40,100 bases of DNA, taken from a virus. The notes below the pieces were generated by a model. The model did not search any database. It was not told the origin of the DNA and saw nothing but the letters and a program-made list of their open reading frames with translations. This document shows positions 1-23,359 of the stretch, piece by piece. The position numbers were made by a program, and so were the translations under genes. Position 1 is the stretch's first letter. Every line of letters starts with the position of its first letter. The stretch covers positions 1 through 40,100 of the IMG/VR virus record IMGVR_UViG_3300042453_005789, one strand, 5' to 3'.

Positions 1-63
1 TTGTTCCTTAGTTTTCACAATACAAAGGCAAAAGGCTGCGCCTTTTGACAGTGGCGCTGGATA

Positions 64-126
64 CCGGATCAGCGGTCGCTGCGCTCCCTTGTCCGGTATG
101 ACGATGCATAGACATGAACAGCCCTG
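64..126. repeat. 63-bp dispersed repeat, left inverted copy
   Basis: This 63-bp stretch is the exact reverse complement of 1332-1394, so the pal gene sits between two inverted copies. The repeat carries a gtccggtatgacg core and inverted ccgg ends, which makes it partly self-complementary. It contains no gene. The copy here is truncated compared with the copy near 1333-1437, which has both terminal inverted repeats. I infer a small non-autonomous repeat (REP or MITE type) dispersed in the host genome. Confidence 0.85.
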
Positions 127-149
127 CGCGGCGGGGCGGGACGGTTGTC

Positions 150-425
150 TTTTGGGGTCAAGGGGCGGGGCGGAAAAATACCGGACTGAAGACCGCGCAG
201 CGGGCTGAGGGAGGATGATTTTTTCGCACCGGCGCAGCGCACCCCTTGACCCCAAAAGAGAACTGTGGGGGTGGGAGGCGCGTGCTTCCGGCGAGGAAAA
301 GGCTCCCACCCAGCAGAATTTGCTTTGGGCCTCAAGGGTCCGCTTCGCCGAGGGGAAAAAAATCATCCTCCCTCGCTATCGCTCAGTCCGGTATTTTTCC
401 CCCCTCGCCCTTGACCCCCAAACCC
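150..425. repeat. Nested inverted repeats, no gene
   Basis: The first 520 bases hold no convincing gene. The strings 'ggggtcaagggg' and 'ccccttgacccc' recur in both orientations (about 152-163 and 242-253, with a relative near 408-418). The block 'aaaaataccggactga' near 175-190 is answered by its reverse complement near 387-402, and 'gagggaggatgatttttt' near 207-225 by its complement near 358-375. The result is a set of nested, imperfect palindromes. The open frames across it are low-complexity Pro/Arg/Ser translations and look like by-products of the repeats. Confidence 0.6.
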
Positions 426-460
426 AATCCTGCTGCCCCGCCCCGCCTTTTCAAAATATT

Positions 461-500
461 TTTAAAAAAAAGGCCCCGACGTTTTCACGTCAGGGCCTTT
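461..500 (-). terminator. Rho-independent terminator of pal
   Basis: On the - strand a stem with one mismatch (arms at 487-500 and 469-482, aaaggccctgacgt paired to acgtcggggccttt) is followed directly by a T run. It lies 23 bases beyond the pal stop codon and faces the right way to end pal transcription. Confidence 0.85.
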
Positions 501-522
501 GATACAGAAAGTCTAAAGAAAA

Positions 523-1047
523 CTATTTCTTCAGAACGGTGATGGAGCGACGGTTTTTGGACCAAGCGGACTCGTCAAAACCAGCAACAGCAGGACGCTC
601 TTTACCAAAGCTGATGGTGGTGATGCTGCTGGCAGGGACACCGGAAGCCACCAAGAAGTCTTTTGTGGCGGTGGCACGACGGGCACCCAAGGCAAGGTTG
701 TATTCACGGGTTCCGCGCTCGTCGGTGTGACCTTCGACGATCAGGGCCAAATCAGGGTTGGTTTTCAACCATTCGGCTTGCTTGCGCAGGGTGGCTTTAG
801 CGTCTTCGTCCAAAGCGTGGCTGTCATAAGCAAAGTACACGTTGGCGCCAACAGCGGCATCAAAAGCGCCTTGTTTTTCGTTGATTTGGCTCAGATCCGT
901 ACCGTAGGTGGTGACGTTCACATCACTGGGAGTTGAGCTGGCGCTGGTGTCGGAAAGATCGTTTCCTGTGGAAACGTTGTCTTCACCGCCGGCACAAGCG
1001 GCCACAGCGACCAAAAGAGAGACAGACAAAAGAATTTTTTTTATCAT
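523..1047 (-). CDS. pal: Peptidoglycan-associated lipoprotein Pal
   Basis: Pal anchors the outer membrane to peptidoglycan and works with the Tol complex in cell-envelope constriction. The 174-residue protein begins with a lipoprotein signal peptide whose lipobox ends VAAC, so Cys18 is the likely lipidated residue. A Ser/Thr/Asp-rich linker (about 22-60) leads into an OmpA-like domain (about 68-172). That domain has the hallmark HTDERG followed by N-x3-GARRA (Asp109 and Arg123/124), the residues that bind diaminopimelate in this family. The length is normal for Pal. The start has an SD-like aagg a few bases upstream. No tol genes are on the visible side; upstream neighbours are separated by 475 bases of repeats. 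The identification is secure. Confidence 0.95.
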   Translation of the reverse strand: MIKKILLSVSLLVAVAACAGGEDNVSTGNDLSDTSASSTPSDVNVTTYGTDLSQINEKQGAFDAAVGANVYFAYDSHALDEDAKATLRKQAEWLKTNPDLALIVEGHTDERGTREYNLALGARRATATKDFLVASGVPASSITTISFGKERPAVAGFDESAWSKNRRSITVLKK

Positions 1048-1331
1048 AGGTTTACCTTAACGTTGATGATGAATGAATAACTGCGCAGGATGGGGGAGAT
1101 TTTCAATCTCTTTTTCTCAAGCGACTGTGAATATACATTTTTTCTGACCAAAGAAAAGGACTTTTATCAAAAAAAAAGGATGAGAAAAATTTGCGTGTAT
1201 CATTTCGAACACAGGGGTAACAGATGGCTCTTTCTTTTTTGCAAGCAACAAAAAAATGTGTCGTGCTTTCCCTATTTGCGTACTGAGCCAAGAACAAACA
1301 CCTACGTAGATGTTCAAGTAGCCGTCAAACC

Positions 1332-1437
1332 CAGGGCTGTTCATGTCTATGCATCGTCATACCGGACAAGGGAGCGCAGCGACCGCTGATCCGGAATGAC
1401 GCAGAATCGTTAGGTTCTGGCAGAAAGGAACAGCCCT
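1332..1437. repeat. MITE-like element with 10-bp terminal inverted repeats
   Basis: The stretch 1333-1437 begins with agggctgttc and ends with its exact reverse complement gaacagccct. Bases 1332-1394 are the inverted copy of 64-126. The element is about 105 bp and encodes nothing. I see no clear target-site duplication; 'gtcaaacc' occurs just outside both ends (about 1324-1331 and 1441-1448) and might be a flanking direct repeat. The class (MITE, REP or other) is an inference. Confidence 0.6.
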
Positions 1438-1450
1438 AGCGTCAAACCTC

Positions 1451-1490
1451 TAAAAAAGCAAAAACGATAGGCTCAGCAGAGCCTATCGTT
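1451..1490 (-). terminator. Rho-independent terminator of ihfB
   Basis: A perfect 12-bp stem (1463-1474 with 1479-1490, loop agca) is followed on the - strand by a T-rich tract. It lies 33 bases beyond the ihfB stop and is oriented to terminate it. Confidence 0.85.
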
Positions 1491-1494
1491 ACAG

Positions 1495-1529
1495 TTACCT
1501 GTCACCTGTCACCTGTCAGGTGTTACCTG
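1495..1529. repeat. Heptad tandem repeat array 1
   Basis: There are five 7-base units: ttacctg, tcacctg, tcacctg, tcaggtg, ttacctg. CCT falls every seven bases, except that the fourth unit is inverted (AGG). The array runs into the last codons of ihfB. The same period-7 pattern occurs at 16155-16256 and 16873-16896. Confidence 0.7.
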
Positions 1530-1810
1530 CCTTTCGGATTCAACCGATCCCGCAGAATTTTTCCCGATTTGAAAAACGGGGTGGCTTTGGCAGGAACGAA
1601 GACAGATTCCCCTGTTTTGGGATTTCTGGCTTGGCGCTGCTCGCGATGACGTACGGCAAAAGACCCAAAGCCCCTGAGTTCAACGCGGCCGTTATGGGCC
1701 AGCGCTTGGGTAATTTCCTCAAAAAACAAAACCACAGCCTCTTCCACCTGTTTGGCGGACAGATGAGGGTTTTCTTTGCACAAAGCATCAATAAGTTCAG
1801 AGCGTTTCAT
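1523..1810 (-). CDS. ihfB: Integration host factor subunit beta
   Basis: IHF beta pairs with the alpha subunit to bend DNA in replication, transcription and site-specific recombination. From the ATG at 1810 the protein has 95 residues, the usual length, and begins MKRSELID. An upstream in-frame start at 1834 would add eight residues, but the SD-like aaggac sits in front of the internal ATG. The HU/IHF signature is complete: RVELRGFGSF, then RNPKTGE, VPAKATPFFKSGK and LRDRLN. The ELRGFGSF form and DRLN end favour IHF beta over HU. The last codons overlap a heptad repeat array. Its position just downstream of rpsA on the same strand matches the conserved rpsA-ihfB order, although cmk is absent upstream. 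Confidence 0.93.
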   Translation of the reverse strand: MKRSELIDALCKENPHLSAKQVEEAVVLFFEEITQALAHNGRVELRGFGSFAVRHREQRQARNPKTGESVFVPAKATPFFKSGKILRDRLNPKGR

Positions 1811-1853
1811 AATCAATACAGTCCTTTTCGACACAACACATAACAGACAAAAC

Positions 1854-1879
1854 AGAGGGAAGGCATACCCCCTCCCTCT
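1854..1879 (-). terminator. Putative terminator or processing hairpin after rpsA
   Basis: The arms agagggaagg (1854-1863) and ccctccctct (1870-1879) form a 10-bp stem with one mismatch between rpsA and ihfB. On the - strand it is followed by a mixed gttttgtctgtt tract, so termination may be partial. Confidence 0.5.
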
Positions 1880-1895
1880 TCATCCCCCTTGGCGA

Positions 1896-3668
1896 TCAAG
1901 ACGAGGCTTCATCCTTCGAGGTTTTGGCACTTGCGCTTTTCTTAATGGCAGGGCCCAAAATATCACCCAAACTGGCGCCGCTGTCTGCGGAACCATATTC
2001 GGCCATCATTTGTTTCTCTTCCTTGATTTCACGGGCTTTGATGGACAACGTGATTTCTTGTTTGGACAAATTCAGGGCAGTGATGAGGGCATCAATCTTT
2101 TCCCCCTTGGCAAAACGATCCGGACGTTGTTCGCTGCGATCACGGGACAAATCCGATCTTTTGATAAAGAGAGGCTGTTCAAAGTTGGGCAGCGTCACAT
2201 GAATCCCCGCATCTTTAATGTCGGATACGGTACAGGTCACAATATCACCCTTCTTCAGCTTGACAGAGGGAGCGCTGCTGGTGGAAGAAGCCTCCTCAGA
2301 CTTCGATGCGCTGGGCTGGGCCGCCTGCGATGAAGCGTTGGCACCCAATGTCACGGACATTTCTGCCGGATCAACTTTTAATAGGGTGACGGTTATGACA
2401 TCGCCCTTGGCAATGGTTTTTAACGCCTCAGCCCCTGAGCCTTGGGGGGTGAAATCTTCCGCGGCCAAAGTGCCACGAATACCGCTTTCAAGTTCAACCA
2501 ACACTTTGGCGTTATAGGTTCGCACCACAACCCCCTGCAATTCCGTGCCCTCGGGGTGCTGATCCGCAAAACGTTTGTAGGGATTTTCCTGACACTGTTT
2601 CATACCCAGACTGATGCGGCGCTTGTCGGTATCCACATCCAAAACCATCACATCAACATCTTGGCCAATGGTCACAACTTTTTTAGGATCGGGGTTTTTA
2701 TCCGCCCAAGAGATTTCAGACATATATACCAGACCCACAATGCCAGGCTCCAGCTCAACAAACGCCCCATAATCGGTGACACTGCTGATGCGTCCGGTCA
2801 GTTTGGTGCCCACGGGGAATTTGGTGACGGCCACTTTCCAAGGGTCTTCCTCCAGATGCTTCATGCCCAGAGAAATGCGCTTGGTTTCGGGGTCAATTTT
2901 GGTGATTTGAACCTCGATGGTTTGGCCAATTTCCAGCGCTTCGCTGGGGTGATTGACGCGGCGCCAAGAAATATCCGTAACATGCAACAATCCATCCACA
3001 CCGCCCAGATCCACAAAGGCCCCAAAGCGGGTGATGTTTTTGACCACGCCCTTGACCACTTGTCCCTCGATGATGTTTTTCAGGAACTCTTCGCGGGCTT
3101 CGGTGCGGGATTCTTCTAAAATGGCACGACGGGACACGATGATGTTGCCGCGTTTTTTGTCCATTTTCAAAATCTGGAACGGTTGTTCGATATTCATCAG
3201 CGGTGACAAATCCCGTATAGGGCGAACATCCACTTGACTGTTGGGCAGAAACGCCACGGCGCCCTGCAAATCAACCATCAAACCACCCTTAACACGGCTG
3301 AAAATTTTTCCGGTGGTGGGTTCATCTTTGGCGTAGGCTTTTTCCAATTCAATCCACGCCTCTTCACGGCGGGCTTTTTCACGGCTCAGGACAATGGCCC
3401 CGTCGCGATCTTCGTAACGATCCACGTAAACATCGACTTCATCGCCCACGGCGGGGGTTTTGCCATCGGCTTGCTCAAATTCCTGTAAAGGGACCATACC
3501 CTCAGATTTTAAACCCACTTCAATCAGGGCAAAGCCCCCGAACAGATCCATAACGTGACCGCGCAGAACAGAGCCCTCAATTTTGCCCTCCGCCCCTAAA
3601 ACTTCATCCAGCAACGCGCCAAAGGATTCTTTGGATTGAGATGTTTGCTGTGCTTTTTGATGTTGCAT
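1896..3668 (-). CDS. rpsA: 30S ribosomal protein S1
   Basis: S1 binds mRNA and helps load structured or weak-SD messages on the 30S subunit. The 590-residue protein (ATG at 3668 preceded by aaagg at good spacing; the TTG six bases further out is less likely) carries six S1/OB repeats. The third and fourth are the most canonical, with FGAFVDLG...GLLHVTDISW and YGAFVELE...GLVYMSEISW. Repeats one, two, five and six are more diverged, as is normal. The C-terminus ends with a YGSADSGASLGDILG segment that I recognise from alphaproteobacterial S1. A Ser/Ala-rich linker separates repeats five and six. ihfB follows on the same strand. Confidence 0.97.
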   Translation of the reverse strand: MQHQKAQQTSQSKESFGALLDEVLGAEGKIEGSVLRGHVMDLFGGFALIEVGLKSEGMVPLQEFEQADGKTPAVGDEVDVYVDRYEDRDGAIVLSREKARREEAWIELEKAYAKDEPTTGKIFSRVKGGLMVDLQGAVAFLPNSQVDVRPIRDLSPLMNIEQPFQILKMDKKRGNIIVSRRAILEESRTEAREEFLKNIIEGQVVKGVVKNITRFGAFVDLGGVDGLLHVTDISWRRVNHPSEALEIGQTIEVQITKIDPETKRISLGMKHLEEDPWKVAVTKFPVGTKLTGRISSVTDYGAFVELEPGIVGLVYMSEISWADKNPDPKKVVTIGQDVDVMVLDVDTDKRRISLGMKQCQENPYKRFADQHPEGTELQGVVVRTYNAKVLVELESGIRGTLAAEDFTPQGSGAEALKTIAKGDVITVTLLKVDPAEMSVTLGANASSQAAQPSASKSEEASSTSSAPSVKLKKGDIVTCTVSDIKDAGIHVTLPNFEQPLFIKRSDLSRDRSEQRPDRFAKGEKIDALITALNLSKQEITLSIKAREIKEEKQMMAEYGSADSGASLGDILGPAIKKSASAKTSKDEASS

Positions 3669-3850
3669 GAACAATGCCTTTGATTTGGTTAATGAAAGAC
3701 CTTCCTTATACGATGCTGTTTTTCGTTATGCAAGGTGTCTTTGGGGTTTTTTTTTTGGAAAAAACGAAGGGAGGCAAAAGCGTTCCTGCGAAAGATCACG
3801 ATTCTTCTTCACGCGGCGATGCGACCTAAGGACGCGAAGACCTTCCTGAT

Positions 3851-4642
3851 TCAAGGCCTCCCTTGCTCCGCCACCACGGCGGCGGCGGCGGCATCCAGAT
3901 GATATTGGGGGACATCGCGCATCAGGGCGGTGATTTTATCGTAACCTTCCAGATCCACCAAAACCGAAGGATCATGCCGTTTGGCTTTGTCCATAAGGAT
4001 TGTATAACGCTGGTGCAGAGCTTTGGTCAGGGCGTTGGGTTTATCCTCCATGGCGGCATCCAGATTTCCGCTGTGCAGGGCATAGCTGTCTGGTCCTGCG
4101 CTGGGCAGACAGGTGGTGAAGGTGGCCTCATCCAGCCCCCTCAGCCGGATACGCCAGCAGCGGGAACGCACCGTAATCGGCAAAGCCCCCAGGGCCGACG
4201 TGGTTAGAATCAAGAGCGATCCTGCGGGCGGTTCCTCCAGCCGTTTCAGCAGAGCATTGGCCGCCTGATGGTTCATGGTTTCCGCCCCCGCAATGATCAG
4301 TGCCCGCCCCGCCCCCAAACTGGACGTTTTGCCCAAAAAGCTGCACGCCTCGCGGATGGCATCCACAGAAATGCCGGTTTTATCCTCAGGTTTTTTCACC
4401 ATCATCACATCGGGGTGGGTGCCCTGCATCAGATGGGCCATCACACGGGCCTCTTGGTTTTTTTCCAAAAACGCCGCCACCAAATGCTGGGCCACCAGGG
4501 CCGCGCCGCACCCAGGGGGCCCATACACCACCCACGCATGGGCCAAACGCCCCCCCGCCAACGCATCATCAAACGGCCGCAGGGACGGTCCATGATACCG
4601 GATCAAGGCCGTCATGGCCTCTGGCGAAAGGGGTGTTAGCAT
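3851..4642 (-). CDS. holB: DNA polymerase III delta' (clamp-loader) subunit
   Basis: This 263-residue AAA+-like protein resembles HolB, which helps open and load the beta clamp. Visible signatures are a P-loop-like GPPGCGAA near residue 42, then LIIAGAETMNHQAANALLKRLEEPP around 112-138, and an SRC motif (VRSRCWRIRL) near 158. The NALLK-LEEPP and SRC motifs are the family hallmarks. The P-loop lacks the normal GKT/S, which agrees with delta' not hydrolysing ATP. It is shorter than many alphaproteobacterial homologues, with a weak C-terminal domain. A gamma/tau (DnaX) origin is less likely because of the degenerate P-loop. In many alphaproteobacteria holB follows tmk, but no tmk is visible here. 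Confidence 0.8.
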   Translation of the reverse strand: MLTPLSPEAMTALIRYHGPSLRPFDDALAGGRLAHAWVVYGPPGCGAALVAQHLVAAFLEKNQEARVMAHLMQGTHPDVMMVKKPEDKTGISVDAIREACSFLGKTSSLGAGRALIIAGAETMNHQAANALLKRLEEPPAGSLLILTTSALGALPITVRSRCWRIRLRGLDEATFTTCLPSAGPDSYALHSGNLDAAMEDKPNALTKALHQRYTILMDKAKRHDPSVLVDLEGYDKITALMRDVPQYHLDAAAAAVVAEQGRP

Positions 4643-4695
4643 AAGACGGGAAACATTTCCTTCTTTTTAACCTTCCCCACGGTATCATTTTCAGA

Positions 4696-4723
4696 TTGAC
4701 GATCCAAGTGAAACTCGCTAACT
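4696..4723 (+). promoter_or_regulatory. Predicted sigma-70 promoter of tRNA-Asn
   Basis: TTGACG at 4696-4701 and ctaact at 4718-4723 are separated by 16 bases and end 13 bases before the tRNA. The -35 match is good and the -10 is moderate. Confidence 0.5.
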
Positions 4724-4736
4724 GTTTTGTCTGTGT

Positions 4737-4811
4737 TCCTCGGTAGCTCAGTGGTAGAGCAAGCGGCTGTTAACCGCTTGGTCGGGGGTTCGAATCCCTC
4801 CCGGGGAGCCA
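4737..4811 (+). tRNA. tRNA-Asn (anticodon GTT)
   Basis: A complete cloverleaf can be folded: acceptor tcctcgg pairs with ccgggga with one G-T wobble. The D arm contains agctcagtggtagagc. The anticodon stem is gcggc/gccgc-like around loop ctGTTaa. The T arm is ggggg-ttcgaat-ccctc. The discriminator is G and CCA is encoded. The anticodon GTT reads asparagine codons AAC and AAU. It is the last host gene before the prophage-like cassette. Confidence 0.96.
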
Positions 4812-5144
4812 TTTCATGTTTTTGAACTTTTCTCTCCCCCTCATCACCATTCTCTCAAGGCCGGCTTTCTGCCGTACTTTGCGGGTTTTTCACTTGGCGG
4901 CGGTGTTTTGGGGGTTTTGCGCACGGCTTCGCATGGGTTCGCTCAGAGGGGTTTTCTCTGTAACGTCACTTGGCTTTTTGCGCCAAAGCCAAGTGGCAAA
5001 AGTCATTGTTTTTTAATGTTTTTTATTTTTTAAGGTTCGAAACCCCTTTGCACACCCACTTGAGCGAAGCCGTGGCGGTTAAAGCGAAACGCTGCGAAAA
5101 CAAAGGTGATTGAGCGAAATTCAGGGTCGTTTTATCCTGTGGTT
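4812..5144. other. Non-coding junction between tRNA-Asn and the recombinase cassette
   Basis: No gene is supported here. An 11-bp perfect hairpin (4967-4977 with 4985-4995, loop ttgcgcc) is followed by a tract with several T runs (about 5008-5031). It could terminate tRNA transcription on the + strand. The prophage attachment site may be in this junction, but the other end is outside the window. No second copy of the tRNA 3' end was seen. Confidence 0.5.
4967..5015 (+). terminator. Putative terminator downstream of tRNA-Asn
   Basis: The stem cacttggcttt/aaagccaagtg is perfect and is followed within about 12 bases by a six-T run. The gap before the T run makes it a weaker candidate than a classical terminator. 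Confidence 0.45.
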
Positions 5145-5336
5145 ATGAAACAGGAATTCCCCATCATTGATTCCCCTCTTTTGGAGGTTGCCGAAATCCT
5201 AGCCCTAGGCATTCTGCGCCTGCGGGAAAAACATTCTGCCTTTTCTGGCCCAGAAAGAGAGATTTCCCTGGACTTCTCGGGGCCTTCTGAGCCTTCATGG
5301 ACACACCTTAAAAACACAGGAAAAAACAATGAATAA
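5145..5336 (+). CDS. Small conserved protein of the recombinase cassette
   Basis: This 63-residue protein starts at the ATG at 5145; the frame extends 13 codons upstream without a better start. It has a helical segment (LEVAEILALGILRLREKH) followed by a short SLDF-type acidic tail. I recognise the layout AEILA.G..RL....-LD from small ORFs that precede DUF2924 and serine-recombinase genes in alphaproteobacterial islands, but I cannot name a function. Its stop overlaps the start of the DUF2924 gene by eight bases, which suggests translational coupling. It might be a regulator or partner of the recombinase. Confidence 0.65.
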   Translation: MKQEFPIIDSPLLEVAEILALGILRLREKHSAFSGPEREISLDFSGPSEPSWTHLKNTGKNNE

Positions 5337-5760
5337 CAATGTATTGTCGCAGATCAATGACCTTAAAACCCTCACCATGGTCCAGCTGCGACAACGCTGG
5401 CTGGTGTTGTTTACAACCGACCCGCCAGCATATGGGCGGGCTTATTTGGAACGTCGCCTTGCTTACCGTATTCAGGAATTGGCCCACGGCACCGACACGG
5501 CGCTGTTAGAACGAAAAATGGAGGAAGCGGCCAAAAAGCGGCTTGGAGAAAGGAACCACGGACGCAAAACCATAGAACGCCCTGTCAGCGGCACGCGCAT
5601 CACCCGGGAATGGCAGGGGGAAGAGCACCAGGTGACGGTGCTGGCCGATGGCTTTGACTATCGCGGCCAGAAATACAACAGTCTCTCACGCATCGCCAAA
5701 GTGATTACCGGCACCGTCTGGTCGGGGCCGGTGTTTTTTGGTCTGAAACGGGGGTCCTGA
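5329..5760 (+). CDS. DUF2924 domain protein
   Basis: This 143-residue protein ends with the strong DUF2924 signature: GTRITREWQGEEHQVTV, then GFDYRGQKYNSLSRIAKVITGTVWSGPVFFGL. The N-terminal half is helical and includes a YLERRLAYRIQELA segment. The family is of unknown biochemical function and is found next to large serine recombinases in alphaproteobacterial islands and prophages. The domain resembles DNA-associated 'REWxG...H.V.V...F.Y.G..Y.SLS.IA..ITG' folds fused to restriction or helicase proteins, so a DNA-binding accessory role is plausible. The stop overlaps the recombinase ATG (ATGA). Confidence 0.88.
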   Translation: MNNNVLSQINDLKTLTMVQLRQRWLVLFTTDPPAYGRAYLERRLAYRIQELAHGTDTALLERKMEEAAKKRLGERNHGRKTIERPVSGTRITREWQGEEHQVTVLADGFDYRGQKYNSLSRIAKVITGTVWSGPVFFGLKRGS

Positions 5761-7100
5761 TGAAACGCCAAGAGCCGCTTCAAAAACGCATCCGCTGCGC
5801 CGTCTATACCCGAAAATCCACCGAAGAAGGGCTGGAGCAAGAGTTCAATTCGCTGGATGCTCAGCGGGAGGCTGGTGAATCCTACGTGGCCTCCCAAAGG
5901 CACGAAGGCTGGACCTTGGTACCGGATCACTACGATGATGGGGGGTTCAGCGGTGGCAGCATGGAACGTCCCGCTTTGAAGCGATTGCTGGCCGATATTG
6001 CCGCCCGTAAGATTGATGTGATTGTGGTTTATAAGGTTGACCGTCTGTCCCGCTCGCTGTCCGATTTTGCCAAGATGGTGGAGATTTTTGATGCCAACAC
6101 TGTGTCTTTTGTCTCGGTGACTCAGCAATTTAACACCACCACAAGCATGGGGCGGCTGACCCTGAATATCCTTCTGTCCTTTGCCCAGTTTGAGAGGGAA
6201 GTCATCGGCGAGCGCGTGCGCGACAAAGTCGCGGCCAGCAAGCGTAAAGGGATGTGGATGGGCGGGTGCCCGCCGCTGGGGTATGACATTGTCGAGAAAA
6301 AACTGGTGGTAAATCCAAGTGAAGCCGAGTTGGTGCGGCGCATTTTCCAGCGGTTTTTGACGCTGCGCTCTTGCACCACGCTGGCGCGGGAGCTTCGGGC
6401 CAAGGGCTGCCGCACCAAGAGTTATACCACCCAAACAGGCCGCGAGAAAATCGGCACACTGATGGACAAGGGCTATGTGTACAAGCTGCTGAGCAACCCG
6501 ATGTATCTCGGCGAGATTCATCACAAGGGACAGATTTATGATGGTCAACACGCGGCGATACTCGACCGTGATACATGGAACGCTGTACACGCTGTGATGC
6601 AGGAAGGCCCCCACCAACGGGCCAACACCACCCGCCGCCAAACGCCGGCTCTGCTCAAAGGGATCCTGAAATGCAGCGGCTGTCAGTGCGCCATGACCCC
6701 CACCCACACCCGCAAAAAGGGCAAACTGTATCGGTATTATGCGCCCAGTGCGGTGATGAAAGCCAAATGCACCGATTGCCCTGTGGGAACCATCCCCGCT
6801 GGTGAAGTTGAAGAGGTGGTTTTAAGCCAGTTAACCGATATTTTCCGAACCCCTGAAATGGTGGTGAGCATATGGAAAGCTGCATATGCCCGCGATGATG
6901 ACATCACAGAAAAGGATGTGGTGGAGGCGCTGGGCAACATGCAGGCCCTTTGGGATCACCTGTTTCCCGCTGAGCAAGCCCGCATTTTGCATCTGCTGAT
7001 TGCCCAAGTGTTGGTCAGCACCAAGGGCGTGGATTTGCGCCTGCGTACTGATGGCCTGACCTCTTTGGTCAAGGAATTACAGGCACGAGAGGCCGCATGA
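5760..7100 (+). CDS. Large serine recombinase (putative prophage integrase)
   Basis: The 446-residue protein begins with a resolvase catalytic domain (about 11-160): YTRKS with nucleophile Ser20, the ERPALKRLL segment (68-76), YKVDRLSRS (91-99), and the family-typical FNTTTSMGRLTLNILLSFAQFEREVIGERVRDK. A recombinase domain follows (about 170-280), then a zinc ribbon with Cys305, Cys308, Cys337 and Cys340. Large serine integrases insert phage DNA between short attP/attB sites without a tRNA requirement, so the nearby tRNA-Asn may be incidental. At 446 residues it is on the short side, with little room for a long coiled coil. It starts in an ATGA overlap with DUF2924 and ends in an ATGA overlap with the next gene. 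All catalytic residues I can check are present. Confidence 0.93.
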   Translation: MKRQEPLQKRIRCAVYTRKSTEEGLEQEFNSLDAQREAGESYVASQRHEGWTLVPDHYDDGGFSGGSMERPALKRLLADIAARKIDVIVVYKVDRLSRSLSDFAKMVEIFDANTVSFVSVTQQFNTTTSMGRLTLNILLSFAQFEREVIGERVRDKVAASKRKGMWMGGCPPLGYDIVEKKLVVNPSEAELVRRIFQRFLTLRSCTTLARELRAKGCRTKSYTTQTGREKIGTLMDKGYVYKLLSNPMYLGEIHHKGQIYDGQHAAILDRDTWNAVHAVMQEGPHQRANTTRRQTPALLKGILKCSGCQCAMTPTHTRKKGKLYRYYAPSAVMKAKCTDCPVGTIPAGEVEEVVLSQLTDIFRTPEMVVSIWKAAYARDDDITEKDVVEALGNMQALWDHLFPAEQARILHLLIAQVLVSTKGVDLRLRTDGLTSLVKELQAREAA

Positions 7101-7616: not shown

Positions 7617-8384
7617 GTGAGCAAACAAATGATTGTATCAACGGGAAACTTTTTATTAAAATGCTTTGATGCGCCTTCAATTGAAATATTAAATGAGTTA
7701 TTATCTTTAGCTTTAAAAAATTTCAATATTAAATACTGGGCATACCTTTCCCTACCGAACGATACGAGATATAACTCTGATAACAGACCTATTTGTTATA
7801 CCAATTATCCCCAAGAATGGGTTGAGTTTTATTTTGAAAATCGGTTTCAAACAATCGATCCTATTTTACTAAGCTTTCAGAGCGCAGAAGAACCCTATTT
7901 ATGGAGCTGTTTTTTAAAAGAACTTTCGTTATCAACTCAGCAAAAAAAGTTTTTTAAACAAGCTTCGGATTTTCAATTGCATGAGGGGATAACTTTCCCC
8001 ATACGCTTCTCTGATCGAAAAAATTCAGCCATTTTGACTTTTGTTCCGGAAGACAATCCACTTGAATCTTATGGATTTTTTAGTACAAATAGAGATGATA
8101 TAAAAATTATCGCCCACACTTATCATTCATTAATCAAGAAATTTCACGAGCATCACCCAAGACAAGATTTTAATTTGTTAACCCCAAGAGAACAAGAATG
8201 CTTGGCATGGGTCATTCAAGGAAAAAGCGATTATGAAATTGGCATTATTCTTGGCAACCTATCAAAAGCGACCGTTACCTCAATGATTGGCAATGCGAAA
8301 CAAAAACTAGACTGCTACAGTCGTACCTCAGCCGCGTTTAAAGCCCTTCAACACAATTATATACCACCGGTTATCCCCGAATAA
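7617..8384 (+). CDS. LuxR-family quorum-sensing regulator (LuxR solo)
   Basis: This 255-residue protein has an autoinducer-binding domain (about 20-170) and a LuxR-type helix-turn-helix (about 186-245). The TraR/LuxR invariants are all present: Trp68, Tyr72, Asp81, Pro82, Trp96 and Gly124 correspond to TraR 57, 61, 70, 71, 85 and 113, each shifted by exactly 11. Glu192, Leu196 and Gly202 match TraR 178, 182 and 188, shifted by 14. This implies binding of an acyl-homoserine lactone and DNA. No luxI synthase is in the window, so it would sense a signal made elsewhere. The gene is much more AT-rich than its neighbours, a sign of separate acquisition. The start is uncertain (GTG 7617 or ATG 7629; no strong SD). 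It converges on the endolysin gene and lies between the integrase cassette and lysis genes. Confidence 0.9.
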   Translation: MSKQMIVSTGNFLLKCFDAPSIEILNELLSLALKNFNIKYWAYLSLPNDTRYNSDNRPICYTNYPQEWVEFYFENRFQTIDPILLSFQSAEEPYLWSCFLKELSLSTQQKKFFKQASDFQLHEGITFPIRFSDRKNSAILTFVPEDNPLESYGFFSTNRDDIKIIAHTYHSLIKKFHEHHPRQDFNLLTPREQECLAWVIQGKSDYEIGIILGNLSKATVTSMIGNAKQKLDCYSRTSAAFKALQHNYIPPVIPE

Positions 8385-14517: not shown

Positions 14518-16149
14518 CTAGTACCCCTCACCAATTAGCACAAAGTCATATTTCGTCTGCGTCACCACGAACCGCCCATCGCGCAGTGCCAGCACCTGCC
14601 CTGGAAAGGCCACGGTGCCGTACTGAATGAGCGAGAGATAACCACCGTCCTTGGCAAAGCCCTCTTTTGGCGAATAGCTGCGCACGCGGTTGCCGCCATA
14701 CGAGGTGCTCCAGATGATGCCGTAGGGATCAGCTGGGTGAATGCTCACATCCATGGCGTTGGTGCCGTGGTTCAGCGTTTTGGTGATGGTATTGGTCGCG
14801 GGGTTGATGACCTGCAAAATATCTTGCCCGTTGACCACCACCCAGATAAAGCCATTCACGGAGTTAACGGCAATGCCCCACGGAAAGAAACCCAGAGCAA
14901 TCGTAGCCTTGACCGCTCCCGTGCTTGGATTCAGGCGTACCACGCCTTCGTTGGTCGTCAGCCACAGATCGCCGTCAAGACCAAACGCCAGTTCGGTGGG
15001 GCATTCGGTTACTGTATAGCTGGCAACAACGCTGCCCGTGGCAGGATTGATCTTCTGCACAAGATCTGCCCACGGGCAACTGATCCAGACAAAGCCATCG
15101 GCAGCCACTTTCACGCCCCACGGGTAAATCCCCGTGTTCACCGTGGCAACAATCGCGTTTGTCGCAGGATTGATGCGCTGTACGGTGTTATTGGCATGGC
15201 AGGTGACCCACAGGTGGCCGTCTACGGGGCTGATTGCCGCCCGCACGGGCTGTGCGTCAAGATTTCCCAGATAATCCGCGCTGCTGCGGCCAATCGTTGC
15301 CTTAACCCGAAACGTTGCGCCGTCAATGCGGGTGACGGTGCGTTGCAGGCGGTTCACGACATAAATATCGCCGTCCAGCCCCTCGACGAGACCGTGCGGG
15401 CCTTCTTCGGTGAACACACGCCCCAGCGTGTCGATGACTTCCGCCTCCACATTGGGCAAGCGGTTGCCGTAGCGCGAGAGATCAATGGTGTCGAACCGCA
15501 GATAGGCATGGTCACGGTAGGCAGGCGTTAAGCCGATACCCTCGATGCTTTCGATCAGCTCATCGGGGGCTTGGTCTTCGCCGCCCAGATAAATCTCAAC
15601 ATTCAAATCTCGCCCATTCACACCGCGATTGTTGGCGCGAAAATCATAGACAAGGTTGCGGTTCATCCAGATGCGCCGCACCGCCGAAATCCCTTGGCGG
15701 CGTTTAAAGGTGAGTTCGTCCTCATCTTCAAAGCTCTCCCGTGCACTGCCTTCCTCTTCCAGCGGCGGCGTATTGGCGAGGGATACAGCGAAACTCGCCA
15801 CATAAAATTCCCGCGTTTGGTAGACAGGTTGGGTTCGCCCGCTCTTGCCGCCCTCAATCACCGTGGTGCCCACCAGCACGTTTTCCGATGTGGCGGTGAT
15901 TTCGGTTGACCAAATGACGTTCCCTGCCACGCGGGTGATGCCATACACCAGCGGAATCATCGCGCCGTGGGCCGAGGATTGTGCTTTCAGGTCTTCGAGG
16001 CGCGGTCCCACCTGATAGGCATCGGCGTTGGGCAGGCTGCCCGCTGCGCTAAACGCGCCCATAGCGGCGGCAATGCCTAGCCCTAAGCCCGCCATGGCAA
16101 AGCCCGAGCCCATGCCTGCGCCAGCAGCACCGAGTACCAGCATTGCCAT
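14518..16149 (-). CDS. Tail-hub N-terminal module fused to a YVTN beta-propeller
   Basis: The first 200 residues are a glycine-rich hydrophobic segment followed by the GTA-type tail-hub N-terminal module (GPRLEDLKAQSSAHGAMIPLVYG...AGNVIWSTEI, then GLTPAYRDHAYLRFDTIDLSRYGNRLPN). This is paralogous to the whole 205-residue protein at 16251-16868. From about residue 240 to 520 it has repeats of about 42 residues of the type W-x-NPATxxxVATV, PWGIAVNxVNGFIWV and LQVINPATNTITKTL, which is a YVTN/NHL beta-propeller. Propellers serve as binding platforms, so receptor or glycan recognition is likely. The 543-residue length is normal for a two-domain protein, and the C-terminus ends with a beta strand, not the usual hub domain. 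It is probably an alternative or accessory tail-tip protein. Confidence 0.75.
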   Translation of the reverse strand: MAMLVLGAAGAGMGSGFAMAGLGLGIAAAMGAFSAAGSLPNADAYQVGPRLEDLKAQSSAHGAMIPLVYGITRVAGNVIWSTEITATSENVLVGTTVIEGGKSGRTQPVYQTREFYVASFAVSLANTPPLEEEGSARESFEDEDELTFKRRQGISAVRRIWMNRNLVYDFRANNRGVNGRDLNVEIYLGGEDQAPDELIESIEGIGLTPAYRDHAYLRFDTIDLSRYGNRLPNVEAEVIDTLGRVFTEEGPHGLVEGLDGDIYVVNRLQRTVTRIDGATFRVKATIGRSSADYLGNLDAQPVRAAISPVDGHLWVTCHANNTVQRINPATNAIVATVNTGIYPWGVKVAADGFVWISCPWADLVQKINPATGSVVASYTVTECPTELAFGLDGDLWLTTNEGVVRLNPSTGAVKATIALGFFPWGIAVNSVNGFIWVVVNGQDILQVINPATNTITKTLNHGTNAMDVSIHPADPYGIIWSTSYGGNRVRSYSPKEGFAKDGGYLSLIQYGTVAFPGQVLALRDGRFVVTQTKYDFVLIGEGY

Positions 16150-18820: not shown

Positions 18821-19312
18821 ATGAATGAAATCCATAATGAGACGGAGCGACGTCGTCATAGTTATAAGCCAGAAAAAATTCGCATATTATTCATAGGAGA
18901 GTCAGCACCAGATCGTGGGACGTTTTTTTATAGAGAAAATAGCGGTCTTTACCGCGAAATGAAGAAGGGATTCGAAAGTCAGTACGGTTCAATTGATGAT
19001 TTCTTATCTTGGTTTAAAACGAATGGTTTTTTTCTTGATGATCTCGTCTTAGCTCCCGTTAATAAAAAAGCTAGAAAGGAGCGCAATCACTTTCATACAA
19101 TCTCAGCCAACGATTTAAGATCAAGAATTCAACAGTATAAACCGATAGAAATAATAGGCCTTCTCAAAAATAAAAGTTTTCAGAAGGCCGTTTCAAATGC
19201 GGCAACACAAGCTGGTTGTAACGTCAAAACTTTCCTTCCTTTTGCTGGAATGGGACATCAGAAATCTTTTCAAAAGGAGTTCTCTCAAATACTTCAGGGA
19301 ATCTCTCTTTAA
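18821..19312 (+). CDS. Uracil-DNA-glycosylase-fold-like protein (moron)
   Basis: The 163-residue protein runs opposite to the tail operon and is much more AT-rich than its surroundings. It has a supported start (ggaga seven bases before ATG). Near residues 20-37, IRILFIGESAPDRGTFFY resembles the IGESPP..G.FFY loop of uracil-DNA-glycosylase-like proteins. Further, FLDDLVLAPVNK and a C-terminal FLPFAGMGHQKSFQKEF are visible. I do not recognise catalytic residues well enough to claim base excision. Inserted genes like this often give the lysogen a benefit, such as protection from other phages; that is inference. Its last bases overlap the end of the tape measure gene tail to tail. Confidence 0.6.
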   Translation: MNEIHNETERRRHSYKPEKIRILFIGESAPDRGTFFYRENSGLYREMKKGFESQYGSIDDFLSWFKTNGFFLDDLVLAPVNKKARKERNHFHTISANDLRSRIQQYKPIEIIGLLKNKSFQKAVSNAATQAGCNVKTFLPFAGMGHQKSFQKEFSQILQGISL

Positions 19313-21732
19313 GTATTCCGCCCCTTGTGCCGTGCCAGCGACACCGCCAGATCCCCCATAATCTGCCCGCGGCTTTGGCGAAAAGACTCTGCATCGCGGG
19401 TGACGATGGTCATGTTGATAACGGGACTGCTGGAGCCGCCCGTTTTTCCGGCTTGTTCGCGGGGGATGACAACCTCGCCCCGTTGCAGGATAGCGGGCAC
19501 TTCATCGGGCATCAGCCCTGCAATGCCCCCGCTGTGATAGCGCGGGGCAGTGGCAAATAGCATCGGCGAGACAGCGCGTGACGGTGCGCCCGCGCCAACG
19601 GTGCCGCCCTCATGAAAGATGCCCGCCCCCAAAAGTCCCTGTGCCAGCGGTGCGGTGATGGCTTGGCGAACGGCGATGCGGGCCAGATCCCGCAGAATGC
19701 TGTTGGCGAGATCTTGAAAGTTCAGTTTTCCCGTGGTGACAAAATCAACAAGGGAATCCTCAAGCCCCTGAAGGCTGCGGCTCATGGCGTCCTGCACTTG
19801 CCCGGCCACGTCGGTGGCGGATTTGGCGTAGTCTTCCAGAGCCCGTTTCGCGCCTGTGGCAAAATCATTGCTGCCTTCTTCGGCCTGGTGGAAAGTCTCG
19901 CTTGCCTGTGCGACAGCGCGGTTGTAGGTGTCTTGGTCAATGGCACCTTTGGCCAGTAGGTCGTTCAGTTTAGTGATTTCGGCGCCGTATTTTTCCGCAT
20001 CGTTGCGGGTCGTTTCGAACACCTGCCGAGCGGCATCGGCTGCTTGTTGTTCTTCGTAGAGTTTCGCCGCCAGCTCCTGGGCCTTGGCTTTTTGGTCATC
20101 GGTGGCATCTGGGGAGAGCCTCTCCACGGCTTGATCCGTGAATTTTTCCTTATCCGATTTGCCGACAGCAGAACGGTCGGCCTCTAACCGTGCCAGAATC
20201 TCTTGGTTTTTGGCGTAATCTTCCTGCGCTTTTTTGGTGGCTTCTAGCGCGGTTTTTTCATCGTACAGCGCACCAGCCAATTCCCGCACCCGTTCGCGTT
20301 GGGTGGCAGTGGCTTCGCTGGAAAGCCGGCGTTCCGCCGTTAAAACAAACTGCTGGCGTTCATTGAGCAGCAGAGCCTGCCGTTCATCTTCCAAGGAACG
20401 GATGACGCTGGCGCGGGCATCCACGGTGCTTTTTTGTGCTTCGGCCTGTTCTCTGCCCGCCTGTTCCAACGCGGCATTGGCCACGGCCAGTTCTCGGATT
20501 TTCTGGGCCTCCGCGCTTTTGGCATCGATTCCTAATTTACGGATCTGTGTTTCGGCAGCTTGTTCACCCTTCACCCGCGCCACGGCGTCTGCACCTTGGA
20601 TCATGGCCGCGTTTAATTGTTCAATCTGCTGCTGTTCCCGTTGCAAGGTATCGATGACTTCGCCTGTATCCTGTTGTTTACGGGCGGCTTCGTAGGCCTT
20701 TTGCGCTTCCTCTTTTTTGCGCTGTTTTGCGGTTTCCGTAGCGGCGTTTTCGAGGATCTGCCGCTGTACGCTGTCCAGTTCGGCCTTGATGCGGTTCACC
20801 TCTTCCCGTGCTTGGGCGATGCGGCGGCCGCCCAGCAGGCCATCGCTATCGTTATTCAGTTGCTGGGAGGCGTTCAAATCAGCCGTTGCCCGTTGCAATC
20901 GTGCGGTTAAATCCCGAAACTGCTCATCCAGCGAGGGATCAGAAAACAATCCCCGCAGACCATTGACGGTGCGCAAGATAACCGTTTTGTAGGTGGTGTC
21001 CACCTGCTGGGTGAAGCGGTTCCATTCGTCTTCCAGAGCTTGGGTCTGTTTGACCAGATCCTCGCCCAAGACAACACCAAACGCATGGGCTTCCTTGGAA
21101 AGGCTGGAAATGCCGGCCTCGCCTTCAGAGAGCAATTGCACCAGACGCGGCCCTGCCTGTTTGCCGAACAAATCAGAAGCCAAGGCGGCTTTTTCAGCCT
21201 CGGAACCAACACTTTCGAGTTTCTGCACAAATTCATCGAACACATCACCCGCGTTTCGGATGGTGCCATCAGTATTCAGGGCCGCAATCTGTAATCGTTC
21301 AAACGCACCTGCCGCCGCGCCCGTGCCATCGGTGGCGACATCACCGAGGCGCTGATTGAGTTTGCGGATGCCATCATCCAGCAGTTCCGCCGATGCCCCG
21401 CTTTGTTCGGCGGCGTAGCGCAATTCCTGCAACCGCTCGACATTAATGCCGATGCTTTGTGCCAAATCCCCCAACTCTGCCGTTTTAATGACGGCGCGGT
21501 TGATGCTGTCAAAAATCTGATTCCCCGCCGCCAGCGTGCCCGCTACGGCAAAAGCCCGCTTCAGGCCGCCAACAACGGAACTGAGGGCCTGCAACTGGTT
21601 CGAGGCCGGCACACCGGCCTGCTCAATGCGTTTTAATGCCTGTTCCCCCGCGCGGCCAATATCCTGCAGCTCTCGCGCGACGACTTTGCCGTTTTGGGTG
21701 GCAAGGCGGATGGAGAGGTTACGGGTTACCAT
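19309..21732 (-). CDS. Tail tape measure protein
   Basis: The 807-residue protein sets tail length. The N-terminus contains an ALSSVVGGLKRAFAVAGTLAAG hydrophobic helix. It continues with IGINVERLQELRYAAEQSG and GDVATDGTGAA, which are familiar from lambda-type tape measures. A long Ala/Glu/Gln/Lys-rich coiled coil follows (about 265-620). The C-terminus has LEDSLVDFVTTGKLNFQDLANSILRDLARIAVRQAI and a glycine-rich FHEGGTVGAGAPSRAV...RGEVVIPR segment, the standard end of the lambda-like family. The start overlaps the end of the chaperone -1 frame by 14 bases, and the frame is open throughout. Confidence 0.95.
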   Translation of the reverse strand: MVTRNLSIRLATQNGKVVARELQDIGRAGEQALKRIEQAGVPASNQLQALSSVVGGLKRAFAVAGTLAAGNQIFDSINRAVIKTAELGDLAQSIGINVERLQELRYAAEQSGASAELLDDGIRKLNQRLGDVATDGTGAAAGAFERLQIAALNTDGTIRNAGDVFDEFVQKLESVGSEAEKAALASDLFGKQAGPRLVQLLSEGEAGISSLSKEAHAFGVVLGEDLVKQTQALEDEWNRFTQQVDTTYKTVILRTVNGLRGLFSDPSLDEQFRDLTARLQRATADLNASQQLNNDSDGLLGGRRIAQAREEVNRIKAELDSVQRQILENAATETAKQRKKEEAQKAYEAARKQQDTGEVIDTLQREQQQIEQLNAAMIQGADAVARVKGEQAAETQIRKLGIDAKSAEAQKIRELAVANAALEQAGREQAEAQKSTVDARASVIRSLEDERQALLLNERQQFVLTAERRLSSEATATQRERVRELAGALYDEKTALEATKKAQEDYAKNQEILARLEADRSAVGKSDKEKFTDQAVERLSPDATDDQKAKAQELAAKLYEEQQAADAARQVFETTRNDAEKYGAEITKLNDLLAKGAIDQDTYNRAVAQASETFHQAEEGSNDFATGAKRALEDYAKSATDVAGQVQDAMSRSLQGLEDSLVDFVTTGKLNFQDLANSILRDLARIAVRQAITAPLAQGLLGAGIFHEGGTVGAGAPSRAVSPMLFATAPRYHSGGIAGLMPDEVPAILQRGEVVIPREQAGKTGGSSSPVINMTIVTRDAESFRQSRGQIMGDLAVSLARHKGRNT

Positions 21733-22021
21733 GGGTGGTGTCGTTCATTGCTGAATGAAGGGCGGCGGGGATAGCCGGAAACAGTTCGGCAATCACAGCC
21801 GTGTCATAGCCGAGGCAGGAAGCCAGTTGCAGGGCATCAGACAGGGTTTGGGTGCGCAAGCCAATGTCCCACGCCTGCCAACCCTCCAGCGTTTTCGGCT
21901 CAAAGCGCTGATAAGGACAATCGTCGGTTAGCTCACTTGCACAGGGGAGTCGCTGCTCATGGCATCCGGCGCAGTAACGGGCGCCGCCGCCGAAGTGCCA
22001 TTGGCAGCGCTCGAACAGGGC
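21719..22021 (-). CDS. Tail chaperone T-domain, reached by -1 frameshift
   Basis: This frame has no ATG or GTG in a usable place, yet it is open for 100 codons from the slippery site to a TAA at 21719. Its product has five cysteines (relative positions 6, 17, 20, 27, 35) that look zinc-binding: RCQWHF, YCAGCHEQRLPC, DDCPYQRF. A conserved-looking helical end follows (EGWQAWDIGLRTQTL, LASCLGYDTAVIAELFPAI) of the sort seen in tail chaperones before the tape measure gene. Fused to the first 121 residues of the upstream gene it makes a protein of about 221 residues, as lambda G/GT does. The upstream zero frame after the site is low-complexity Ala/Ser/Pro, which agrees with its being a tail of no great constraint. 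Confidence 0.75.
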   Translation of the reverse strand, partial: ALFERCQWHFGGGARYCAGCHEQRLPCASELTDDCPYQRFEPKTLEGWQAWDIGLRTQTLSDALQLASCLGYDTAVIAELFPAIPAALHSAMNDTTHGNP

Positions 22022-22383
22022 TTTTTTTCGGCGTCTAACAACTCCTTTAATCCCGTGTACTGCGTGCGAAACTCATCGGCCAGCGTCCAGAAACTCATCA
22101 AATCGCTTACGGTTTGGTTATTGACGGGGGCGGGGTCTTCGGAATCGGGCAGCAGCACCCCCTCCCATGCCAGAATACCCACTTTCGCCAGCGCCGTGGT
22201 GAAGGCAGCGATGCGGCGGCCTTCCTCTAGGGCGGTATTTTCTGATGGGGTATCGCCCAGCTTCTGCCGCGCCACCGATTGGGCCGCATAAAACACCGCG
22301 CTGGTGAACGGGCGCACCTGCACACGCACACCCAGCTTTAAATCAATCCAATAGGGCTCGGTGGGTATTTTTAATGATAACAT
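21928..22383 (-). CDS. Tail assembly chaperone (G-like frame)
   Basis: The 151-residue product begins with IPTEPYWIDLKLGVRVQVRPFTSAVFYAAQSVARQKL. It lies between the tail tube gene and the tape measure gene, the standard chaperone position. Residues 1-121 are shared with the frameshift product. The codons at 22029-22021 are GAA AAA AAG, giving an A AAA AAG slippery heptamer at residues 119-121. The 30 residues after it (PCSSAANGTS...) are low complexity. The start has AGGAAA at good spacing. In lambda the two products bind the tape measure and recruit tube subunits; the same is inferred here. Confidence 0.85.
   Translation of the reverse strand: MLSLKIPTEPYWIDLKLGVRVQVRPFTSAVFYAAQSVARQKLGDTPSENTALEEGRRIAAFTTALAKVGILAWEGVLLPDSEDPAPVNNQTVSDLMSFWTLADEFRTQYTGLKELLDAEKKPCSSAANGTSAAAPVTAPDAMSSDSPVQVS
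22021..22048 (-). promoter_or_regulatory. Programmed -1 frameshift site (A AAA AAG with upstream SD)
   Basis: On the - strand the heptamer A AAA AAG spans 22027-22021 in the correct zero-frame register (GAA AAA AAG). An SD-like aaaggag spans 22048-22042, 14 bases upstream. This is the same slippery heptamer as in E. coli dnaX, where an SD about 10 bases upstream also stimulates the shift. A hairpin ggcgc-ccgttact-gcgcc lies further downstream, too far for a classical stimulator. The direct signals are strong; frameshifting itself is inferred. Confidence 0.8.
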
Positions 22384-22417: not shown

Positions 22418-23359
22418 TTAATAAGAGGCCACATCATTCACCAAGGTGACGGTCACCATGGCGTTGGCCGCCGTGTTTCTGGCCCCTTGGAAATCGTAGG
22501 AGGCTTCCACACCGCCGGGGCCTTGAATACCAATTTTGGGTTTGGGCAAATACACCTCGTGGCACAGAATGACCAGCTTGTTGTTGGCATCAATGGTGTA
22601 GGAAAACTCCAGATCCACCGCCGTTCCCGCGCTGGCGAGGTCAATGAGTGTATTATCGGCGTAGCGCACCGCCACTGACCCCGTGAGCGCGGTGATACCA
22701 GGATCGACGCCGTCCAGCTTGCCATCGCTGCGGATGGTTTCGATTTTCTCGAGGTTGTTGCTGTACGTGACAGATGCGCCGGTGACATTGGCCAACGCAC
22801 TGCCGCCTTGTTTGATGGCCCCTTGAAATTGCGAGAACCGCGTGTAATTGGCTTGGGTTGGCGTGCCGCCTTGGGTGGTCGCATTCCGCGTTTCGCCCTG
22901 GCCGATGCAGTTGATGGTGGCGGTGGCTTCGCCCGAGCGGGTAAAATTGAACGCCATGGAATTGACACGCACGCCGGCCACCATGAAAAAAGCGGGAATT
23001 TGGGGAAGTCCCGTTTCTAAAGACAGGCTGGGCAGGCTGGTCGCCCCTGATTTGAAGGCATGGCTGTAGGGCGCGGTGCTGCCCGTTGTGGTGGGGGCAC
23101 CGAGAAGGGCTTTCAGCCACTGGCCGATATTGCGCAGATCCACGGGCACCACAATATCGCCGTCCACGTTGATGGCGTCCTGATACGGCTGGGTCGGATC
23201 GCGTCCTAAACCAATGACGTTGCTGGCAATCAGCCCTTGCTGGGCGCTGATATCCCGACTGACAAAGGGCATTTTTTTAAAACCAGACACGGGCGGCGTG
23301 CCGTAGGTGGATTCAAAAGCAAGCAAAAGTTGGGCGTTCCAGCCGTAAGCACGGGCCAT
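22418..23359 (-). CDS. Phage tail tube protein
   Basis: The 313-residue protein belongs to the 'Phage_tube_2' type of tail tube proteins. Visible family features are ARAYGWNAQLLLAFESTYGTPPVSGFKKMPFVS at the N-terminus, PYQDAINVDGDIVVPVDLRNIGQWLKALLGAP, GVRVNSMAFNFTRSGEATATINCIGQ and a C-terminal QGARNTAANAMVTVTLVND. It is the immediate upstream neighbour of the chaperone gene, as expected for the major tail protein. The SD ggag is well placed. Confidence 0.88.
   Translation of the reverse strand: MARAYGWNAQLLLAFESTYGTPPVSGFKKMPFVSRDISAQQGLIASNVIGLGRDPTQPYQDAINVDGDIVVPVDLRNIGQWLKALLGAPTTTGSTAPYSHAFKSGATSLPSLSLETGLPQIPAFFMVAGVRVNSMAFNFTRSGEATATINCIGQGETRNATTQGGTPTQANYTRFSQFQGAIKQGGSALANVTGASVTYSNNLEKIETIRSDGKLDGVDPGITALTGSVAVRYADNTLIDLASAGTAVDLEFSYTIDANNKLVILCHEVYLPKPKIGIQGPGGVEASYDFQGARNTAANAMVTVTLVNDVASY

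What the first reader, a model, noticed from the sequence alone, without database searches (positions are those of the whole stretch)
21719..22383. Hidden T-domain read by programmed -1 frameshift in the tail chaperone gene
The zero frame holds GAA AAA AAG at 22029-22021, an A AAA AAG heptamer in the correct register. An aaaggag SD-like sequence lies 14 bases upstream. The -1 frame that follows is open for 100 codons to a TAA at 21719, has no ATG/GTG in a useful place, has five ordered cysteines and ends 14 bases inside the tape measure gene. The zero frame after the site is low-complexity. Lambda G/GT is the known precedent (established). The sequence is shown directly; the shift is inferred.
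Basis: partly seen in the sequence, partly recalled or inferred. Interest (0 to 1): 0.7.

Follow-up and report, generated by a model that had tools for sequence, protein, structure and literature searches.

The report
Phage tail chaperone made by frameshifting
A prophage makes a second, longer version of a tail-building helper protein by having some ribosomes slip back one base at a run of A's, a well-known phage trick that is supported here by comparing about 60 related sequences, so the finding is real but ordinary in kind.

Summary
On the minus strand, a 151-aa tail assembly chaperone (22383-21928) carries A AAA AAG in register at 22027-22021; the -1 frame after it encodes 100 residues and stops 14 bases inside the tape measure gene. 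A search with the neighbouring tail tube protein, independent of the finding, recovered over 60 relatives. Every one long enough to test has an in-register heptamer (A AAA AAG/AAA/AAC, or G GGA AAC in Rhodobacter phages) upstream of the same -1-frame domain. Purifying selection switches from the zero frame to the -1 frame at the heptamer. In 17 loci a -1-frame stop abuts the heptamer, leaving no room for a separate start. Rhodobacter phages already carry this gene as a joined CDS in GenBank. Extra points: most relatives have a covarying hairpin 7 nt downstream; the window's clade has lost it and instead shows AAGGAG 14 nt upstream. All 60 distinct T domains keep four cysteines, a possible metal site. 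Verdict: a new member of the lambda G/GT kind.

The parts
21928..22383 (-). Zero-frame gene for the tail assembly chaperone 'G' (151 aa); residues 123-151, just after the shift site, are predicted disordered
   Evidence: ORF, phrog_313 E 1.1e-06, model with pLDDT <50 at 123-151, best structural neighbour HK97 tail assembly chaperone 2ob9 Z 5.1
22021..22027 (-). Slippery heptamer A AAA AAG in register for a -1 shift
   Evidence: an in-register heptamer is kept in all testable relatives
22042..22048 (-). Shine-Dalgarno-like AAAGGAG, 14 nt upstream of the heptamer; candidate 5' stimulator
   Evidence: core AAGGAG in 13/13 distinct window-clade sequences; 9-14 nt spacing for -1 stimulators per PMC5009743
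21722..22021 (-). -1-frame 'T' domain, 100 aa (ALFERC...THGNP), with a conserved WHFGxG-YC-x2-C...C...CP motif and a DUF7697-like C-terminal half
   Evidence: PF24752 E 8.8e-06, 26 bits against a cutoff of 27
21719..21721 (-). TAA stop of the -1 frame, inside the start of the tape measure gene
21981..22013 (-). Place where relatives carry the covarying 3' hairpin (alignment columns 15-47 from the heptamer); the window cannot form that stem, and its alternative stem (columns 18-25 with 40-47) is not conserved within its clade
19309..21732 (-). Tape measure protein gene
   Evidence: Tape_meas_lam_C E 3.4e-29, PHROG tape measure families
22418..23359 (-). Tail tube protein gene
   Evidence: Phage_tube_2 E 8.1e-62

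Best explanation
This is a lambda G/GT-type programmed -1 ribosomal frameshift. Most ribosomes finish the 151-aa chaperone G. A minority slip back one base at A AAA AAG and make a fusion of about 220 residues (the first 120 of G plus the 100 of the -1 frame). By analogy with lambda, G coats the tape measure protein and the T domain of G-T recruits tail tube subunits, so that their ratio governs tail assembly. Shown here: sequence anatomy, conservation of the site, coding selection in the -1 frame, and neighbours. Inferred: that slippage happens, its rate, the roles of G and G-T, and the roles of the upstream AAGGAG and of the hairpin in relatives.
For: Anatomy. G is phrog_313 tail assembly chaperone, between tail tube and tape measure. 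All 63 analysed loci (60 distinct) in the first set have an in-register heptamer and a -1 frame running on past the zero-frame stop. In the bacterial genome set 36 of 37 loci have it, the exception being a contig that ends too early, plus Methylobacterium, Shinella and Paracoccus. The heptamer-to-Trp distance is 27 nt in all 63 first-set loci and in every genome locus matched by the motif search. The heptamer changes type (AAG/AAA/AAC, G GGA AAC) while staying in place. pN/pS in the window clade: zero frame 0.15 upstream; after the site zero frame 0.89, -1 frame 0.22; two other clades show the same switch. 54 of 63 loci have no ATG/GTG/TTG before the conserved Trp in the -1 frame, and in 17 a -1-frame stop abuts the heptamer. 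A hairpin 7 nt downstream covaries in relatives. RcKemmy and RcKvothe carry a joined two-piece tail assembly chaperone CDS.
Against: No measurement of either product. The window itself lacks the covarying hairpin (z -0.09), so its stimulator is uncertain. The structural match of G to HK97 chaperone is weak in absolute terms (Z 5.1), and Foldseek alone gave E 1.9. The T domain has no confident structural match.
Confidence: 0.96

Rival explanations
1. The -1 frame is a separate small gene (as some annotators drew it) translated by internal initiation or coupling from the end of G.
For: Nostoc phage Nsp-JY21 and Synechococcus phage Sc-Yong805-1 are annotated with the -1 frame as a separate ORF. 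The window has an AAAGGAG that could serve initiation.
Against: 54 of 63 loci have no ATG/GTG/TTG in the -1 frame before the conserved WHF motif, and in 17 the -1 frame is closed right up to the heptamer. Selection in the -1 frame is present over the stretch right after the heptamer. The separate ORFs in the two cyanophage records begin after the conserved WHFGxGxYC region and would cut it off.
Confidence: 0.02
2. Transcriptional slippage on the A7 run, rather than ribosomal slippage, supplies the -1 frame.
For: The window has seven consecutive A and many relatives seven or eight.
Against: Rhodobacter phages use G GGA AAC, which is not a homopolymer, at the same place; L075 and L077 have only six A. 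A covarying RNA hairpin at 7 nt spacing fits ribosomal stimulation. The register is always that of tandem slippage.
Confidence: 0.02
3. A sequencing error or a real indel has broken one gene in two.
For: None found.
Against: The same frame relation is seen in about 60 distinct sequences from viral contigs, isolate phages and bacterial genomes, and zero-frame stops stay fixed within clades.
Confidence: 0.005

Closest known systems
Tail assembly chaperone frameshift of Rhodobacter capsulatus cluster RcC phages (RcKemmy genes 15/16, RcKvothe 15/16)
   Same: Same gene place, homologous G and -1 T domain (33-36% identity), in-register heptamer 27 nt before the same Trp; deposited as a joined CDS. 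[quoted passage not shown]
   Different: Heptamer G GGA AAC instead of A AAA AAG; a strong 3' hairpin that the window clade lacks.
Lambda G/GT
   Same: Position between tube and tape measure, -1 direction, short G and longer G-T product; described in PMC5009743.
   Different: No lambda G or T family came up in the profile searches. The T domain here is a Cys4, DUF7697-like domain. Lambda uses a different slippery sequence (own knowledge).
HK97 tail assembly chaperone (PDB 2ob9)
   Same: Best structural neighbour of the modelled G: Z 5.1 over 94 residues, next row 2.4.
   Different: 10% identity; Z is in the range that may reflect only a common arrangement.
E. coli dnaX frameshift signal
   Same: Same heptamer A AAA AAG and an upstream Shine-Dalgarno-like element at a spacing given as 9-14 nt (PMC5009743).
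   Different: dnaX also has a 3' stem-loop and its -1 product is the shorter one (PMC5009743); the window has no conserved 3' stem.

Membership tests
Lambda G/GT-type frameshifted tail assembly chaperones | Gene lies between tail tube and tape measure genes | tested here: met
   Phage_tube_2 and Tape_meas_lam_C on either side
Lambda G/GT-type frameshifted tail assembly chaperones | In-register X XXY YYZ slippery heptamer near the 3' end of G, conserved | tested here: met
Lambda G/GT-type frameshifted tail assembly chaperones | -1 frame continues past the zero-frame stop to about the tape measure start and is under protein-coding selection | tested here: met
   where a tape measure start could be located it lies from 38 nt before to 68 nt after the -1 stop; pN/pS 0.22 in the -1 frame
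Lambda G/GT-type frameshifted tail assembly chaperones | G belongs to a known chaperone family | tested here: met
   phrog_313 E 1.1e-06 for the window, 28 of 29 aligned sequences
Lambda G/GT-type frameshifted tail assembly chaperones | Both G and G-T are made, with G in excess | not testable with these tools
   needs a reporter or proteomics
PF24752 DUF7697 | Score above the Pfam gathering cut-off | tested here: inconclusive
   window 26 bits against 27; 50 of 54 aligned sequences match at E <= 0.01
PF08809 DUF1799 | Profile match | tested here: inconclusive
   8 of 54 aligned sequences at E <= 0.01; not listed for the window itself
HK97-type chaperone fold | Same fold as 2ob9 | tested here: inconclusive
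   Z 5.1, 94 residues, rmsd 5.5, clearly above the next row at 2.4; Foldseek E 1.9
Shine-Dalgarno-stimulated -1 frameshift (dnaX-like) | SD-like element 9-14 nt upstream | tested here: met
   AAAGGAG with 14 nt spacing; spacing rule from PMC5009743
Shine-Dalgarno-stimulated -1 frameshift (dnaX-like) | The element is conserved beyond what the protein requires | tested here: inconclusive
   AAG GAG invariant in 13 distinct sequences, but 15 of 28 comparable two-fold sites are also invariant

The most novel reading that the evidence does not exclude
Within one chaperone family the frameshift stimulator has been exchanged: relatives use a covarying 3' hairpin, while the window's clade has lost it and relies on an upstream Shine-Dalgarno-like element together with A AAA AAG. 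In addition the T domain is a metal-binding (Cys4) domain, which I did not find described for tail chaperones in the papers listed.
Probability: 0.3. Interest if true: 0.4.

Novelty: new member of a known kind. Interest (0 to 1): 0.25.

Why it matters
It supports by comparison that a tail chaperone family found mainly in alphaproteobacterial phages and prophages uses -1 frameshifting. It explains the separate ORFs annotated at this place in some phages and, probably, why DUF7697 stands alone as a family of unknown function: part of it would be frameshift-encoded T domain. It also supplies a natural series in which the slippery heptamer and perhaps the stimulator change while the shift is kept, which would let stimulator replacement be tested directly.

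Tried and rejected
Separate-gene reading: rejected, no start codons. Conserved 3' hairpin in the window's own clade: tested and not supported. AAGGAG as significantly conserved: not significant on codon counts alone. Structural relatives of the T domain: none confident in BFVD or PDB, which does not show that the fold is new. Literature for a zinc or cysteine T domain: three papers held all terms and none was about this by title and abstract. A first motif search missed Shinella and Paracoccus because they have WSF instead of WHF; reading their frames showed the heptamer and the domain. L047, L078 and L108 end before the site and could not be tested.

Full report
What is there. The window is a 40,100-base IMG/VR viral record. 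On its minus strand the tail tube gene (23359-22418, Phage_tube_2) is followed by a 151-codon ORF (22383-21928) and the tape measure gene (21732-19309). The 151-aa product matches phrog_313, 'Tail assembly chaperone'. Near its end it reads GAA AAA AAG, so A AAA AAG (22027-22021) lies in the register needed for tandem -1 slippage. The -1 frame after it runs 100 codons to TAA at 21721-21719, 14 bases inside the tape measure gene, and offers no early ATG, GTG or TTG. The -1 product has six cysteines rather than five.

Test by homologues. I searched with the tail tube protein, which does not depend on the finding, and looked at what follows it. In the first set all 63 analysed loci (60 distinct in sequence) have a zero-frame chaperone ORF with an in-register heptamer and a -1 frame open beyond the zero-frame stop. 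In bacterial genomes, mostly Alphaproteobacteria (Micavibrio and unnamed lineages), 36 of 37 loci have it and the last ends before the site. Methylobacterium, Shinella and Paracoccus replicons have it too. Some viral and genome records overlap, so the two sets are not fully independent. The heptamer changes between A AAA AAG, A AAA AAA, A AAA AAC and, in Rhodobacter phages, G GGA AAC, yet stays 27 nt before the same -1-frame Trp.

Selection changes frame at the heptamer. In the window's clade, pooled pN/pS upstream is 0.15 in the zero frame and 3.97 in the -1 frame. After the heptamer it is 0.89 in the zero frame and 0.22 in the -1 frame. A second clade of 21 shows 0.09 in the zero frame before the site and, after it, 0.83 in the zero frame and 0.35 in the -1 frame; a small third set agrees. 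The modelled G is confident to about residue 110-120 and has pLDDT below 50 from 123 on, that is, from just after the shift site. In one group the zero frame stops within three codons of the heptamer (L074 and kin).

No separate start. In 54 of 63 loci no ATG, GTG or TTG precedes the conserved Trp in the -1 frame, and in 17 a -1-frame stop codon directly abuts the heptamer, so the only way into the frame is at or after the slippery site, where there is no start. This argues strongly against a separate gene, although two cyanophage records are annotated that way.

Stimulators. In 41 distinct relatives outside the window's clade, a hairpin starting 7 nt after the heptamer is paired in 91.4% of cells, 6 of 11 pairs show changes on both sides, and its covariation score (0.352) is far above all slid controls (at most 0.099). 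RNAalifold finds the lower stem on its own. Individual members differ in strength: L084 z -5.7, RcKemmy z -5.0, L041 z -2.4, L074 z -0.6. The window's clade cannot form this stem. Its alternative stem shows no covariation and breaks in several members, and the window's own folding energy is no better than shuffles (z -0.09). Instead it has AAAGGAG 14 nt upstream of the heptamer, within the 9-14 nt given for -1 stimulators in PMC5009743. The core AAGGAG is invariant in 13 distinct clade members, although codon invariance of this degree is common in that gene. A replacement of stimulator is therefore suggested, not shown.

The T domain. The -1-frame domain keeps the motif xLxxRxxWHFGxG-YC-x2-C...C...CP. 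All 60 distinct first-set sequences have four cysteines within 30 residues, most often spaced C-x2-C-x3-C-x2-C; in the window's clade C-x2-C-x6-C-x7-C. This fits a metal site, by inference only. The C-terminal half matches DUF7697 (window 26 bits, just under the cut-off; 50 of 54 aligned sequences at E up to 0.01), and 8 of them match DUF1799. The predicted structure is helical with mean pLDDT 87, without a confident structural relative. For G the best structural neighbour is the HK97 tail assembly chaperone, Z 5.1 against 2.4 for the next row.

Mechanism. By the lambda precedent, as summarised in PMC5009743, G binds the tape measure protein and the T part of a minority G-T product brings in tail tube subunits. 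The anatomy here fits this in each testable respect. What is not shown is that slippage happens, how often, and what each product binds.

Known or new. The same gene in RcKemmy and RcKvothe is deposited as a joined two-piece CDS, and the kind as a whole is textbook. This is a new member of a known kind. Of moderate interest are the exchange of heptamer and perhaps of stimulator within one family, and the Cys4 T domain.

Noticed in passing
window 21877-21728 (about 150-300 nt after the heptamer): The C-terminal half of the T domain exists as two very different alleles among otherwise near-identical relatives. Window against L038: 92-100% nucleotide identity in most blocks on both sides, but 43-62% in the 150 nt in between, as if a small cassette had been exchanged.
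   Followed up: partly
window 1-7100: Host-like genes lie at the left end: OmpA-family protein (523-1047), a protein with six S1 domains like ribosomal protein S1 (1896-3674), DNA polymerase III delta-prime-like (3851-4642); with a large serine recombinase at 5760-7100 this suggests an integrated prophage whose edge is in the window.
   Followed up: partly
window 7617-8384 (+): LuxR-type regulator with an autoinducer-binding domain (PF03472 E 5.5e-23, GerE) near the recombinase, possibly carried by the prophage.
   Followed up: no
window 14518-16149 (-): Tail-region protein with beta-propeller-like matches (virginiamycin B lyase-like, NHL, SMP-30), an unusual candidate receptor-binding protein.
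   Followed up: no
L044, L054, L056, L057, L085: In several relatives an extra stretch of about 0.2-0.4 kb, in L056 with a small ORF, lies between the tail tube and chaperone genes.
   Followed up: no
H4-H14 Rhodobacter phages: The tail tube protein of RcC phages aligns with the window's in two pieces, with about 330 extra nt in between, so it seems to carry an inserted domain.
   Followed up: no
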